A stretch of 41,100 nt of DNA. It comes from an uncultured SAR86 cluster bacterium. Lineage in GTDB: Bacteria; Pseudomonadota; Gammaproteobacteria; Magnimaribacterales; D2472. A program made the translations under genes and the position numbers. The notes beneath the pieces were generated by a model. The model did no database searches. It saw only the letters and a list, made by a program, of their open reading frames with translations, and had not been told where the DNA came from. Below, piece after piece: positions 8,145 to 12,173 of this stretch. The number at the start of each line of letters is the position of its first letter. Position 1 is the first letter of the stretch. Location: the NCBI GenBank assembly GCA_902558095.1, contig CACECP010000009.1:1-41100 (forward strand), written 5' to 3'.

Positions 8145-9233
8145 ATGGGTTTTAAATGTGGAATAGTTGGTCTTCCAAATGTTGGGAAATCGACACTTTT
8201 TAATGCCCTAACTAAATCTGAAATTCCTGCTGAAAATTTCCCTTTTTGTACTATAGATCCAAACGTTGGCATAGTGCCCCTTCCAGATAAAAGGCTTGAT
8301 GAGTTAAATAAAATAGTGAATTCTGAAAAAATTATTCCTGCTGTTTTAGATTTAGTTGATATAGCTGGTTTAGTTAAAGGTGCTTCTGATGGTGAAGGTC
8401 TCGGAAATTCATTTCTTTCAAATATAAGAGAAATGTCTGCCTTGGCTCATGTTGTAAGATGCTTTGAAGATGAGAATATCACTCATGTGGATGGCTCTGT
8501 TGATCCTAGAAGAGACGTTGAAGTCATTAATTTAGAGCTTATTCTTGCTGATCTTGAATCTGTTACAAAACGAATTGCTAGGTGTGAAAAATTATTAAAG
8601 ACAAATGATAAAGAGAATAAGATTCATTTTGATTTATTAAATAAAATAAAACATGAGCTTGAATCAGGAAAATTAATAAATCTTCAGGAATATGAAGTTT
8701 CTGAACAAAAAATTATAAAGCAATTTCAACTTCTTTCCTCTAAACCAACTTTTTATATTGCAAATATTGATGACTCAGAACAATCTGCTAAAAACTTAAT
8801 AGAGCTTGAAAGTATTGCTAATGAATTAGGATCATCGGTTATAGCAGCATCAATAAAGATCGAACAAGAAATATCATTACTTAAAGAGGATGAAAAATTA
8901 GAGTATCTTGAATTATTGGATATGGATGAACCTGTTCTAAATAAAATAATTTTTGAGGGATATAAACTACTAGGTTTAAAGACCTATTTTACGGCAGGGC
9001 CCAAAGAAATTAGAGCTTGGACAATAAAAGATGGCTTCACAGCCCCTAATGCAGCAGGCGTGATACATACAGACTTTGAAAGAGGTTTTATCAAGGCAGA
9101 GGTGATTGATTTTAAAGACTTTATAGAATGCAATGGCGAGTCTGGTGCAAAAGAAAAAGGAAAGTTAAGGTTAGAAGGAAAGGAATATTTGGTTAAAGAT
9201 GGAGATGTTATACACTTTAAATTCAATGTTTAA
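8145..9233 (+). CDS. ychF: Ribosome-binding ATPase YchF (OLA1 family)
   Basis: YchF is an Obg-like P-loop NTPase that prefers ATP, binds ribosomes and is tied to oxidative-stress control. I chose ATG at 8145 (362 residues; E. coli 363) over the upstream TTG at 8106, which would overlap pth by 35 bases and add a non-family N-terminus. The P-loop is GLPNVGKS at 9-16, followed by the PNVGIVPLPD switch and DIAGLVKGASDGEGLGN. The C-terminal TGS domain is visible in GPKEIRAWTI and DGDVIHFKFNV. The pth-ychF pair is a standard gammaproteobacterial arrangement. Confidence 0.96.
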   Translation: MGFKCGIVGLPNVGKSTLFNALTKSEIPAENFPFCTIDPNVGIVPLPDKRLDELNKIVNSEKIIPAVLDLVDIAGLVKGASDGEGLGNSFLSNIREMSALAHVVRCFEDENITHVDGSVDPRRDVEVINLELILADLESVTKRIARCEKLLKTNDKENKIHFDLLNKIKHELESGKLINLQEYEVSEQKIIKQFQLLSSKPTFYIANIDDSEQSAKNLIELESIANELGSSVIAASIKIEQEISLLKEDEKLEYLELLDMDEPVLNKIIFEGYKLLGLKTYFTAGPKEIRAWTIKDGFTAPNAAGVIHTDFERGFIKAEVIDFKDFIECNGESGAKEKGKLRLEGKEYLVKDGDVIHFKFNV

Positions 9234-9271
9234 ATTAAGAGTTTACAAATTAAATGAGAATTAAAAAATAA

Positions 9272-9299
9272 TTGACTCTTTGGCATTAAACATTATCAT
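9272..9299 (+). promoter_or_regulatory. Sigma-70-type promoter for tRNA-Met
   Basis: A -35 box TTGACT (9272-9277) and a -10 box TATCAT (9294-9299) are separated by 16 bases. Both boxes match the consensus at five of six positions. The predicted start, 7 bases after the -10 box, falls one to three bases before the tRNA at 9309, a normal tRNA leader length. Confidence 0.65.
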
Positions 9300-9308
9300 T
9301 CAACGATT

Positions 9309-9385
9309 GGCTATGTAGCTCAGATGGTTAGAGCACAGCACTCATAACGCTGGGGTCGGTGGTTCAATTCCACCCATAGCCACCA
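9309..9385 (+). tRNA. tRNA-Met, elongator (anticodon CAT)
   Basis: A 77-base cloverleaf with encoded CCA. The acceptor GGCTATG/CATAGCC, the D arm GCTC/GAGC, anticodon loop CTCATAA and T stem GGTGG/CCACC are all present, with discriminator A. The body resembles E. coli elongator metT, and the fully paired acceptor end separates it from the initiator at 18010-18086. One oddity is the anticodon stem CAGCA/CGCTG, where position 31 A faces position 39 C. It follows ychF as in Pseudomonas. Confidence 0.96.
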
Positions 9386-9400
9386 CTAAGTTTTGATTAC

Positions 9401-9424
9401 TAAAAAGTTGGTTTAATCTTTTTT
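9401..9424. terminator. Possible bidirectional terminator between tRNA-Met and a small membrane gene
   Basis: The arms AAAAAG (9402-9407) and CTTTTT (9418-9423) face each other around a 10-base loop, and a further TT/AA pairing is possible past a one-base bulge. An A-run on one side and a T-run on the other would give a U-tract in both directions. It lies between the convergent tRNA-Met (plus) and the small CDS ending at 9413 (minus). The stem is AT-rich, so this is tentative. Confidence 0.35.
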
Positions 9425-9646
9425 AAGATATGCGAATATTATGACCAATGCCACTAGAGCTAATAAAGCATCCTCTCCTAGCATATTTAAGACATCAGTA
9501 ACATTTTTATAAACGTCGCCAACAAAAGGCGTATCAACGCCAAATAAAATACCAAACAGCAAAGATGCAACTACTAGAGGTATTAGTAATTTAGTAATTT
9601 TGTTTAGAAAAGCTGTTAGGTTTGTTAGTGTTATCTTAAATTTCAT
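9413..9646 (-). CDS. Small two-helix membrane protein, unknown function (copy A)
   Basis: I do not recognise this 77-residue protein. It has a basic start (MKFK), a hydrophobic segment at about 22-37 (LIPLVVASLLFGILFG), a polar loop with DTPFVGDVYKNVTDV, and a second hydrophobic segment at about 57-74, ending in the charged tail KKD. This is the pattern of a two-helix inner-membrane protein. It resembles the neighbour at 9702-9920: both share NLTA before helix 1, FG before a TP-containing loop, DV..N.T after it, and a Leu/Val/Ala-rich second helix. Tandem duplication of an old gene is the simplest reading. There is no Shine-Dalgarno directly before the ATG; a strong hairpin (9659-9680) lies 13 bases upstream, so it is probably expressed less than copy B. 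Confidence 0.75.
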   Translation of the reverse strand: MKFKITLTNLTAFLNKITKLLIPLVVASLLFGILFGVDTPFVGDVYKNVTDVLNMLGEDALLALVALVIIFAYLKKD

Positions 9647-9658
9647 AATTTTTAAACT

Positions 9659-9710
9659 AGGAAGGGTTTTACCCCTTCCTATTAACGATCGTTAAGTTAA
9701 ATTACTTAAC
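9659..9710 (-). other. Structured intergenic RNA between the paired small membrane genes
   Basis: Three inverted repeats are packed here. AGGAAGGG (9659-9666) and CCCTTCCT (9673-9680) form a perfect 8-bp GC-rich stem with a 6-base loop. TTAACGATCGTTAA (9682-9695) is a perfect 14-base palindrome. GTTAAGT (9691-9697) pairs with ACTTAAC (9704-9710) across the stop codon of copy B. On the minus strand the strong hairpin is not followed by a T-run, so it does not look like a classic terminator. It may protect the 3' end of the copy B message or partly separate expression of the two genes; that is inference. Confidence 0.55.
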
Positions 9711-9920
9711 AAGACTCATTAAGACTGCTAAGACTAATAGTCCTACAACTCCACCGCTAGCTAAGTCGCTAACTAATGATGTTATGTTACCTATCACGTC
9801 AAGTCCAAGAGGTGTGCCGCCAAAAGCTAAGGCTGCAACAATTCCAAGACCAAGCACTCCGATAAGAACAGCTGTTAGATTACTAACGATGTCCTTAATC
9901 ATTTTCCATGCATTATCCAT
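9702..9920 (-). CDS. Small two-helix membrane protein, unknown function (copy B)
   Basis: This 72-residue protein is not one I can name. It has a short amphipathic start (MDNAWKMIKDIVSNL), a hydrophobic helix at about 15-34 rich in Gly, Val and Leu, a loop with TPLGLDVIGNITSLVSD, and a second helix at about 54-71 ending in Lys. It aligns along its length with copy A downstream. A run of six G lies 7 bases before the ATG (plus-strand C-run at 9928-9933), one of the strongest Shine-Dalgarno sequences in the window, and a promoter candidate lies upstream, so high expression is likely. The small size, the Gly-rich helices and the pairing would fit an oligomeric membrane component or holin-like peptide, but nothing proves a role. 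Confidence 0.8.
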   Translation of the reverse strand: MDNAWKMIKDIVSNLTAVLIGVLGLGIVAALAFGGTPLGLDVIGNITSLVSDLASGGVVGLLVLAVLMSLVK

Positions 9921-9974
9921 AATAATTCCCCCCTATTAGGTTTTTTATATGATTTGCAGGTCTAATGAGAACAC

Positions 9975-10003
9975 AAAATACGAAATGAATCAAATTCTGT
10001 TAA
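9975..10003 (-). promoter_or_regulatory. Promoter candidate for the small membrane gene pair
   Basis: Read on the minus strand, TTAACA (10003-9998) is followed after exactly 17 bases by TATTTT (9980-9975). It lies in the 156-bp gap between the pnp stop and copy B and would give a 5' leader of about 45-50 bases that includes the six-G Shine-Dalgarno. I see no convincing terminator after pnp in the same gap, so read-through from pnp is also possible. Confidence 0.45.
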
Positions 10004-10076
10004 CAAAATTTAGTCACAATATTTGACTTTTTGAAATATATGGAATATTGATAAATATTAGGTATATTTTTTATAC

Positions 10077-12173
10077 TTATTCTGTATTTTCTTGTAAGGC
10101 TTTCATTGAAAGCTTCATTTTTCCCTTATCAAATCCAATTAGTTTTACTTCTATTTCTTGATCTTCTTCTAGAACATCTGCAACATTCTCAGTTCTTTCA
10201 TTTGAAATCTCTGAAATATGCAATAAACCATCTTTTCCTGGAAGAATATTCACAAATGCACCAAATTCTACAATTTTGACAACTTTGCCTTTATATACTT
10301 TATTTAATTCTGGTTCTTCAAGTATTTCTTCAATAATAGCTAAGCATTCTTTCATTGACGACTGATTTTGACCAAAAACCGAAACAACACCATCGTCATT
10401 AACATCAACAGTAGCGCCGGTCTTTTCTTGCATTCCTTTAATAACAGCTCCGCCCTTTCCAATGATTTCCTTAATCTTATCCTTGTCTACCATAAATGTT
10501 TTCATTGCAGGAGCATTTTCAGATACTTCTTTTGCTGATGAGATTTCACTATTCATAATGCTTAATATATGATTTCTTGCATTTTTAGCTTTAGCTAAAG
10601 CTGTCTCCATAATAGATTCATCAATACCTTTAATCTTAATATCCATTTGAAGTGCAGTAATCCCGGATTCTGTTCCAGCAACTTTAAAATCCATATCGCC
10701 CAAATGATCTTCATCACCCAAAATATCAGTAAGTACTGCAAAATCATCGCCCTCTTTTATTAAGCCCATCGCAATTCCTGCAACTGGACTAGAGAGTGGT
10801 ACACCAGCATCCATCAATGATAAAGATGTTCCACATACTGAAGCCATAGAACTTGAACCATTTGATTCTGTGATTTCAGAAACAACTCTCATGGTATATC
10901 CAAAATCATCAACATCTGGTAGAACAGCCTTAATTGCTCTTTTTGCTAAATTGCCGTGTCCTATTTCACGTCTCTTTGGTCCCATTGGCATACCTATTTC
11001 ACCTACGCTATATGCAGGAAAATTATAATGAAGCATAAAATTGTCAGATCCCTCGCCCTCTATTGCCTCAATCCTTTGAGCATCTCTAGAAGAACCAAGA
11101 GTAGCAACAACAATAGCTTGTGTTTCACCTCTAGTAAATAAAGAAGATCCATGGGCACTAGGAAGAACACCTGTTTCTACAAATATAGGTCTTACAGTAT
11201 CTAGATCTCTTCCATCAATTCTAGGCATATTATTTAAAATATTTCCTCTAACAATATTTTTCTCAAGATCTTTAAATGAGCCTAAAACTTTTCCAAGTTC
11301 AAATTCATCTAAATCTGAATGCTCTTCAACAATCTGTTTTTTTATTTCACCGAGGGCTTCATTTCTATCAGACTTGTTCGAAATTTTAAAAGCATCTGTA
11401 ATCTGATCTTTATATTTAGTTTCTATGTTTGAATAATGATTGGATTCATCCTCATCTTCTTTGATGACCCAATCTTCATTACCAACCAGTTCTTTTAATT
11501 CATTACATGCTTTAATAACGGCTTTCATTTCCTGATGACCAAAAAGAACAGCGCCAAGCATAAGATCTTCGTTTAACTCTTTAGCCTCTGATTCAACCAT
11601 AAGAACTGCATCGTCAGTTCCAGCTACAACCATATCAAGATATGAGTCATCTAATTCTTCAAATGATGGATTTAGAATGTACTCACCATCAATAAACCCT
11701 ACTCTTGCAGCACCCATTGGCCCATCAAATGGAACCCCTGATATAGTAAGGGCTGCGGATGCACCTATCATTGCAGCGATATCAGGATTCTGTTTTTTAT
11801 CTGAGGACATAACAGTAGAAAATATTTGAACTTCATTCTTAAAGTTTTCTGGAAACATTGGTCTGATTGGTCTATCAATTAATCTTGAAGTTAATGTCTC
11901 TCTTTCTGTAGGCCTTGCTTCTCTTTTAAAAAAACCACCTGGTATTCTTCCGGTTGCATAAAATTTTTCTTGATAAAAAACTGCTAATGGGAAAAAGTCT
12001 TTTGCAGGATCTGCTTCTTTCTTTGCTACTACTGTTGTTAATACTACTAAATCACCAATTGTAACAACCACTGCTGCTGTAGCTTGCCGAGCGATTTTAT
12101 TTGTTTCAATTTTGACTTGTTGTTTTCCATACTGAAATTCTACCGATGTAGACTCTAATTTATTATTTTCCAC
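10077..12173 (-). CDS. pnp: Polyribonucleotide nucleotidyltransferase (PNPase)
   Basis: PNPase degrades RNA 3' to 5' by phosphorolysis and is a degradosome component. The 698-residue protein has the full architecture: a first RNase PH domain with [31 protein letters not shown], an alpha-helical linker, a second RNase PH domain with the active-site region [10 protein letters not shown]...FTRGETQA and [19 protein letters not shown], a KH domain (about 555-597, with [11 protein letters not shown]) and a C-terminal S1 domain (about 622-690, [20 protein letters not shown]). The start is GTG, with Shine-Dalgarno AAGGAAA a few bases upstream. It follows rpsO by 24 bases, the standard rpsO-pnp pair. 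Confidence 0.97.

What the first reader, a model, noticed from the sequence alone, without database searches (positions are those of the whole stretch)
9413..9920. Tandem pair of paralogous small two-helix membrane proteins at a block junction
Seen: two adjacent ORFs (77 and 72 residues) on the minus strand with the same layout: NLTA, hydrophobic helix, FG, TP-containing loop with DV..N.T, second hydrophobic helix, terminal Lys. The upstream copy has a six-G Shine-Dalgarno. They are the only genes here I cannot place in a housekeeping family, and they sit between the ychF/tRNA-Met block and the pnp block. Inference: an old tandem duplication producing two subunits of a small membrane assembly (holin-like pore, envelope-stress peptide or structural proteolipid). 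This is the best candidate for an undescribed system in the window.
Basis: partly seen in the sequence, partly recalled or inferred. Interest (0 to 1): 0.72.

Follow-up and report, generated by a model that had tools for sequence, protein, structure and literature searches.

The report
Paired small membrane proteins, marine bacteria
Two neighbouring genes for tiny related membrane proteins, matching no family in the databases searched, are kept as a pair with an RNA hairpin between them in the oceanic SAR86 bacteria and again in distant small-genome bacteria, and the first one looks very strongly expressed, so it may be an abundant membrane building block that standard protein surveys would miss.

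Summary
In detail: two intact 72- and 77-codon minus-strand genes, A (upstream) and B, are diverged paralogues in a SAR86 genome. The pair is found in 49 of 60 SAR86-order genomes (window's own included), in two members of another gammaproteobacterial family, and A in 46 of 148 Flavobacteriales (genomes of about 2.0 Mb or less); all 30 Flavobacteriales loci read have the partner. Neighbours differ, so the pair is autonomous. No family, PDB or fold match was found. New here: a covarying hairpin lies between A and B in nearly all of 99 distinct pairs, and A carries marks of very high expression (strong ribosome site, low synonymous divergence, and in Flavobacteriales a promoter/leader shared with porin, lipoproteins, acyl carrier protein and proteorhodopsin) that B mostly lacks. 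Both are predicted inner-membrane hairpins. Best reading: an abundant structural proteolipid (A) with a scarcer paralogous partner (B). The function is inferred, not shown; holin, toxin and stress-peptide readings are disfavoured. One or several duplications: unresolved (AU p 0.05). The pair seems dispensable: a 97%-complete one-contig SAR86-order genome shows neither gene.

The parts
9702..9920 (-). gene A: 72-aa hairpin membrane protein, predicted abundant (major) subunit
   Evidence: strong SD, low synonymous divergence; predicted helices 2-32, 37-55, 58-71 at low confidence
9413..9646 (-). gene B: 77-aa paralogue of A, predicted minor subunit; no Shine-Dalgarno seen before it here
   Evidence: predicted helices 2-35 and 40-75
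9658..9681 (-). intercistronic GC-rich hairpin (terminator/attenuator-like or 3'-stabilising); weak U tract in the window itself, U-rich in many relatives
9682..9695 (-). small AT-rich hairpin just before the main one, in the folds of the window and its nearest relatives (L001-L004)
9928..9933 (-). six-G core of the Shine-Dalgarno sequence of A
   Evidence: anti-SD pairing energy compared
9990..10026 (-). upstream region with inverted repeat TCAAAT (10021-10026) / ATTTGA (9990-9995), similar in many of the 19 aligned relatives; pnp 3' end or A promoter region, role not determined

Best explanation
A and B are paralogous inner-membrane helical-hairpin proteins with both ends in the cytoplasm. 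Amphipathic helices lie on the membrane before the two transmembrane helices (clear for A, weaker for the N-terminus of B). A is made in large amounts and is the major subunit. A hairpin after A cuts down read-through or protects the A message, so that B, the partner, is made in smaller amounts. Together they form a structural proteolipid assembly that shapes or fills the inner membrane of small, streamlined cells. Shown: pairing, paralogy, selection, the conserved covarying hairpin, sequence signals of expression on A. Inferred: topology, membrane location, A:B stoichiometry, assembly, structural role.
For: Pair kept: A in 49 of 60 SAR86-order genomes, all 49 with B on the same contig and strand right behind A (coordinates compared by eye); 30 of 30 Flavobacteriales loci read; also two genomes of family f105. 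Neighbours differ, so it needs no fixed operon partner. Hairpin: best stem beats all 60 shuffles in 90 of 99 distinct pairs; score >= 24 in 89 of 95 A-B gaps against 2 of 71 control gaps; 40 cells with both-side changes against 11.7 shuffled, 0 of 500 (23 chosen sequences). Expression: SD stronger on A than B in 52/53, 5/5 and 6/6 pairs of three SAR86 groups; synonymous divergence of A below B in 30 of 32, below ychF in 31 of 31, near rpsO; Bacteroidota -7 box 34-39 nt before A in 29 of 29, with a leader shared with porin, lipoproteins, ACP and proteorhodopsin. Topology and amphipathic helices. A strong constitutive signal plus no dedicated partner and no conserved charge in the membrane helices fits a structural role (inference).
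Against: No expression, proteome or biochemical data were available. In SAR86 family f2 the SD strengths are reversed (A stronger in 0 of 5). Low synonymous divergence of A could also come from RNA-level constraint, and against truB it is lower in only 18 of 28. Some Flavobacteriales may give B its own promoter (full motif in 4, -7 box in 11 of 29 A-B gaps, 3 of the 11 lying before the hairpin), so 'B is scarce' is not shown there. The window's own hairpin has a weak U tract and is only moderately unusual (z -3.2; 2 of 200 shuffles as good). Structure models are of low to moderate confidence (pLDDT 68 and 75). No match to either gene was found in 10 of 60 SAR86-order genomes, two of them 93-97% complete (A profile again). 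A paper listing strongly expressed SAR86 genes names others, but its annotations came only from KEGG-annotated proteins (passages of PMC4410273).
Confidence: 0.45

Rival explanations
1. Accessory subunits of a large, abundant inner-membrane complex (proteorhodopsin, respiratory oxidase or ATP synthase) in these bacteria.
For: The A leader in Flavobacteriales also precedes proteorhodopsin in two of 18 genomes searched. Proteorhodopsin is commoner with A: 17 of 46 against 15 of 102, Fisher p 0.004.
Against: The same leader precedes porin, ACP and lipoproteins, so it marks strong expression rather than a complex. No such complex lies among the two nearest genes on each side listed (by eye).
Confidence: 0.2
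2. A gated channel or solute/ion pathway formed by oligomers of A with B as modifying subunit (mechanosensitive-like or osmotic).
For: Glycine-rich helices with an amphipathic N-terminal helix before the first membrane helix, a layout recalled from MscL; conserved G..GL in helix 2 of A.
Against: No match to MscL, MscS or any channel family at a meaningful level in the Pfam scans; the three potassium-channel hits in PDB sequences have E about 1; no PDB fold match. A very abundant inner-membrane pore would threaten the proton gradient (reasoning).
Confidence: 0.15
3. Holin or holin/antiholin pair, or toxin-antitoxin like membrane peptides.
For: Size and two-helix N-in/C-in layout are holin-like; one of 11 Flavobacteriales B rows touches Holin_SPP1 at E 0.013, not significant in a 24736-model scan.
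Against: Signals of high steady expression on A; no tblastn match in 50,697 phage records for A, B or a Flavobacteriales A nor a confirmed one in IMG/VR by pattern scans, which reach close relatives only; no PHROGs or PADLOC family (PADLOC and the wider PHROGs scan on A rows only); kept across an order.
Confidence: 0.04
4. Exported pilin-like subunits (VirB2/TrbC-like hairpins) of a secretion or appendage system.
For: Hairpin size and predicted abundance; one of 19 A rows touches a conjugal pilin-like model at E 0.087.
Against: No signal sequence seen by eye, no secretion genes among the neighbours listed, no Pfam pilin match. Genome-wide absence of a type IV secretion system was not tested.
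Confidence: 0.05

Closest known systems
F-type ATP synthase subunit c (PF00137), recalled as a yardstick
   Same: Hairpin of two helices, about 75 residues; predicted high copy number.
   Different: No conserved carboxylate in the second helix, no Pfam match; predicted orientation has the loop outside, opposite to subunit c (orientation of c recalled).
Phage holins of the two-helix kind (for example Holin_SPP1)
   Same: Length and number of helices.
   Different: No family-level match, no phage match, expression signals unlike a lysis gene.
Operons with unequal expression by an intercistronic hairpin (for example puf of purple bacteria, recalled)
   Same: A strongly expressed small membrane protein gene (predicted here), then a conserved hairpin, then a second membrane protein gene.
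   Different: Proteins not similar as far as searched; here the two genes are paralogues and no cofactor-binding residue is evident.
DUF5989 (PF19451) and ECF transporter component (PF12822)
   Same: Sub-threshold local resemblance of B (E about 0.08 and 0.003).
   Different: Scores far below the curated cut-offs (13.5 of 27; 18.3 of 30.7 bits); treated as hydrophobic chance matches.

Membership tests
F-type ATP synthase subunit c | Conserved Asp/Glu in the second membrane helix | tested here: not met
   No acidic residue conserved in helix 2 of A or B alignments (19 rows each)
F-type ATP synthase subunit c | Match to its Pfam model | tested here: not met
   No match among 19 A rows and 19 B rows at E <= 0.1
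Phage holin | Match to a holin family above cut-off | tested here: not met
   One of 11 Flavobacteriales B rows touches Holin_SPP1, E 0.013; PHROGs nothing better than E 0.078
Phage holin | Lysis on expression | not testable with these tools
   Needs experiment
Phage holin | Homologues in phages | tested here: not met
   No tblastn match in phage records, no confirmed relative in IMG/VR
MscL mechanosensitive channel | Match to the MscL family model | tested here: not met
   Pfam scans of A and B rows
VirB2/TrbC type pilin | Secretion genes nearby | tested here: not met
   Neighbours of the loci listed, by eye; whole-genome test not done
VirB2/TrbC type pilin | Cleaved signal sequence | tested here: inconclusive
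   None seen by eye in the protein starts; no signal-peptide predictor was run
Two-gene major/minor operon with intercistronic hairpin (works like) | Conserved hairpin between the two genes | tested here: met
Two-gene major/minor operon with intercistronic hairpin (works like) | Measured excess of first product over second | not testable with these tools
   Only indirect signs

The most novel reading that the evidence does not exclude
A is one of the most abundant inner-membrane proteins of genome-streamlined, mostly pelagic bacteria in two phyla: a membrane-shaping or lipid-sparing proteolipid that tryptic metaproteomics would largely miss because 63 of A's 72 residues lie in a single tryptic peptide. 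The A-hairpin-B arrangement arose more than once, which would mean that these cells repeatedly need a scarce, diverged partner to control the abundant one.
Probability: 0.25. Interest if true: 0.87.

Novelty: categorically new. Interest (0 to 1): 0.62.

Why it matters
SAR86 is among the commonest uncultured bacteria of the surface ocean (general knowledge). A pair of proteins that is conserved there and again in small-genome Flavobacteriales, has expression signals like those of porin and acyl carrier protein, and is absent from the family libraries searched would point to an unknown basic part of streamlined cells. The claim is directly testable with existing metatranscriptomes. 'Categorically new' is meant for the protein family; the mechanism is unproven.

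Tried and rejected
Considered and rejected: spurious ORFs (purifying selection and order-wide conservation); unrelated neighbours; holin, toxin and stress-peptide readings (see rivals); obligate link to proteorhodopsin (29 of 46 A-bearing Flavobacteriales show none); known RNA element in the gap (Rfam on 8900-10600 at E <= 5 gave the tRNA and four sub-threshold matches); known fold (PDB: no match for A, nothing with E below 8 for B; BFVD, searched with B only, nothing with E below 4). A DNA search of 8200-11000 against phages gave 119 records; the 20 listed match the pnp, tRNA or ychF parts of the query, not A or B.

Led nowhere or unresolved: number of duplications. On 64 short sequences (32 chosen loci) the tree needs three changes of label and puts Flavobacteriales B nearer Flavobacteriales A, SAR86 B nearer SAR86 A; holding all A together costs 12.5 log-likelihood units, AU p 0.0535, with the two f105 rows dropped. 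One class-level hit, G076/L080, is a false positive: a 225-aa frame with prepilin-like starts among secretion-like genes, judged by eye. Paper searches (search listings only) showed nothing that by title or abstract start describes the pair; only passages of PMC4410273 were read. Most subscription papers are not held, so 'not in print' is not claimed.

Rows dropped before counts: in the pair table the frameshifted L057, and L079, L107, L144 (three copies of one f105 locus, no start of the set length), and L138 (partner too full of N for the profile; seen by eye). Copies of one locus fetched twice were counted once.

Full report
What is there. On the minus strand the window holds two intact genes, A (9702-9920, 72 aa) and B (9413-9646, 77 aa), A first. 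pnp lies upstream of A; a tRNA-Met gene and ychF follow on the other strand. Of the 33 named non-Flavobacteriales relatives, 30 are titled SAR86 and 3 only Gammaproteobacteria or Proteobacteria, so the window is taken as SAR86.

Paralogy. Direct comparison gives 32% identity over 73 columns, E 4e-6 for this one comparison. Profiles from A-type rows only find B in the whole genome (E 1.9e-6; 8.1e-10). Profile against profile: 98.8% probability, E 8.8e-17. The Flavobacteriales partner is related to A (E 1.7e-17) and, more weakly, to an alignment of SAR86 B (E 1.2e-10).

Distribution. A was found in 49 and B in 50 of 60 SAR86-order genomes, the window's own included, and in all 49 the B match lies on the same contig and strand directly behind A (coordinates compared by eye). 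Fifteen genomes without an A match (11 of the SAR86 order, 4 of family f105) were searched again with a better A profile: 1 of 15 matched, G023, at the place of the B fragment at a contig end already seen. Thus 10 of 60 show neither gene, among them G037 (97% complete, one contig) and G052 (93%), so the pair seems dispensable; the other eight are 60-89% complete. In the class sample 5 of 274 matched: the window's own genome, one SAR86-order genome, two of family f105, and one false positive. In the phylum samples only the window's own genome matched (1 of 299; 1 of 398). In family f105's order 2 of 6 matched. In Flavobacteriales 46 of 148 matched (the three query bins included), all with genomes of 2.0 Mb or less as rounded there; of the 20 negatives whose size was listed (of 102), 14 are larger. 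An even sample of that phylum gave 1 of 247, the centre itself. Of the 46, the 30 best loci were fetched and all 30 have the partner behind A (for 29; L138 by eye). Of the other 16, 13 show a second adjacent match by coordinates and 3 (G742, G690, G708) one match only. G687 has two adjacent pairs.

Autonomy. Most SAR86 family 1 and 2 loci read have pnp upstream; most family 1 loci have ychF downstream. In all 5 family 2 loci an alpha/beta-hydrolase-like gene follows the pair, with ychF behind it in 3. In families 3 and 4 the upstream neighbours are different genes (neighbours named by eye). In the three named Flavobacteriales bins the pair sits between a short-chain dehydrogenase and polA; in f105 it follows a 5-formyltetrahydrofolate cyclo-ligase-like gene. 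The pair keeps together while its neighbours change.

Hairpin. Between A and B there is a GC-rich hairpin with quite different letters in different clades. In 99 distinct pairs the best stem beats all 60 dinucleotide shuffles in 90; seven of the other nine, the window's among them, are matched by 1 shuffle, and two (L087, L096, whose hairpins contain a bulge) fail. Stem score is >= 24 in 89 of 95 A-B gaps, in 2 of 71 other same-strand gaps from the same loci, in 7 of 96 stretches after B and 10 of 101 before A. On 23 chosen sequences of the SAR86 family 1 group (of 53 distinct pairs; L045 is placed there by default), 94% of cells pair, 9 of 11 pairs show changes on both sides, and 40 such cells stand against 11.7 in shuffles (0 of 500 as high); slid versions score far lower. 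Related sequences inflate such numbers, but the change of letters between clades with the hairpin kept is hard to explain without selection for the stem. In the window it scores z -3.2, 2 of 200 shuffles as good, and the U tract is weak; the eight bases after the stem hold a median of 2 to 5 T by clade. A simple terminator scan did not flag it. Terminator, attenuator or 3'-end protector cannot be told apart here.

Expression marks. Anti-SD pairing is stronger before A than before B in 52 of 53, 5 of 5 and 6 of 6 pairs of SAR86 families 1, 3 and 4 and in the one f105 pair; in family 2 it is the reverse in all 5; Flavobacteriales, which hardly use SD sequences (recalled), give 7 of 29. Synonymous differences from the window are lower in A than in B in 30 of 32 loci, than in ychF in 31 of 31, pth 29 of 32, pnp 25 of 28, truB 18 of 28, and similar to rpsO (18 of 29); all comparisons share the window, so they are not independent, and RNA-level constraint is another possible cause. 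In Flavobacteriales a TAnnTTTG box (the Bacteroidota -7 element, recalled) lies 34-39 nt before the A start in 29 of 29 distinct loci, and the full TTG-N17-21-TAnnTTTG in 14; the A-B gap holds the box in 11 and the full motif in 4. The box is followed by a leader close to TATTAACCAAA in most. Searching TTTG-N3..8-TATTAAYCAAA in 18 genomes chosen for carrying A gave 50 sites (in 16 genomes) against 6 for the reversed control. Of the 50, 15 precede A (6 of these by coordinates only), 8 a porin-like gene, 10 small lipoproteins, 2 proteorhodopsin, 1 acyl carrier protein, 5 other genes, and 9 no suitable gene, one of these nine judged to lie inside a longer reading frame. Pfam confirmed one example each of porin, carrier protein and rhodopsin; the one lipoprotein scanned has no Pfam match, and the lipoproteins were recognised by eye from the lipobox. 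The A count is by construction; the other genes are not. They are the kind that is abundant in cells (general knowledge), so the leader marks strong expression (inference).

Protein architecture. Two hydrophobic segments; Lys and Arg of the ends outnumber those of the loop in 71 of 71 A and 96 of 96 B sequences, which predicts both ends inside. The stretches before each membrane helix of A are amphipathic (mean z 2.8 and 2.5 against permutations; membrane helix 1 as control -0.9); for B the values are 1.6 for the N-terminal stretch and 2.6 for the loop, the latter on 54 of 96 sequences. AlphaFold2 with shallow alignments (13 and 15 rows) gives helices 2-32, 37-55, 58-71 for A (pLDDT 68, pTM 0.35) and 2-35, 40-75 for B (75, 0.46); no fold match. 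Trypsin would leave 63 of A's 72 residues in one peptide, a reason why proteomics may miss it.

Known families. No match above cut-off in Pfam (A and B rows), none of note in NCBIfam or PHROGs (window A and B, then A rows only) or PADLOC (A rows only); PDB sequences gave nothing better than E about 1; no match in phage records and none confirmed in viral contigs.

Interpretation. The pairing, the selection and the hairpin are shown. That A is abundant and B less so is inferred from three kinds of sequence evidence, with an exception in SAR86 family 2 and with possible B promoters in some Flavobacteriales. That the two form one assembly in the inner membrane with a structural role is the most economical reading of an abundant, partnerless hairpin protein with interfacial helices and no conserved charge in its membrane helices; I give it 0.45. 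An accessory role in a large membrane complex (0.2) and a gated channel (0.15) remain open.

Noticed in passing
18 Flavobacteriales genomes (L147-L188): A shared strong-promoter/leader signature, TTTG-N3..8-TATTAAYCAAA with the ATG 9-14 nt later, before proteorhodopsin, a porin-like gene, acyl carrier protein, lipoproteins and the A gene: 50 sites against 6 control.
   Followed up: partly
window 9990-10026 and the same place in SAR86 family 1 relatives: Inverted repeat TCAAAT...ATTTGA between pnp and A, similar in many of the 19 relatives aligned; may be the pnp 3' end or a regulator site.
   Followed up: no
L171, L172, L182, L184, L187: Small lipoproteins with Cys-rich and His-rich (HDHSGDDHDH-like) tails, sometimes two in tandem (L172, L184), under the strong leader; possible metal binding.
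   Followed up: no
L057 6247-6500: B is split by a frameshift in this SAR86 bin while A is intact; sequencing error or loss.
   Followed up: no
L046 between pnp and A: One SAR86 genome has an extra 242-aa ORF between pnp and A.
   Followed up: no
G687 C1 and C6: One Flavobacteriales genome carries two separate adjacent pairs of matches to the family.
   Followed up: no
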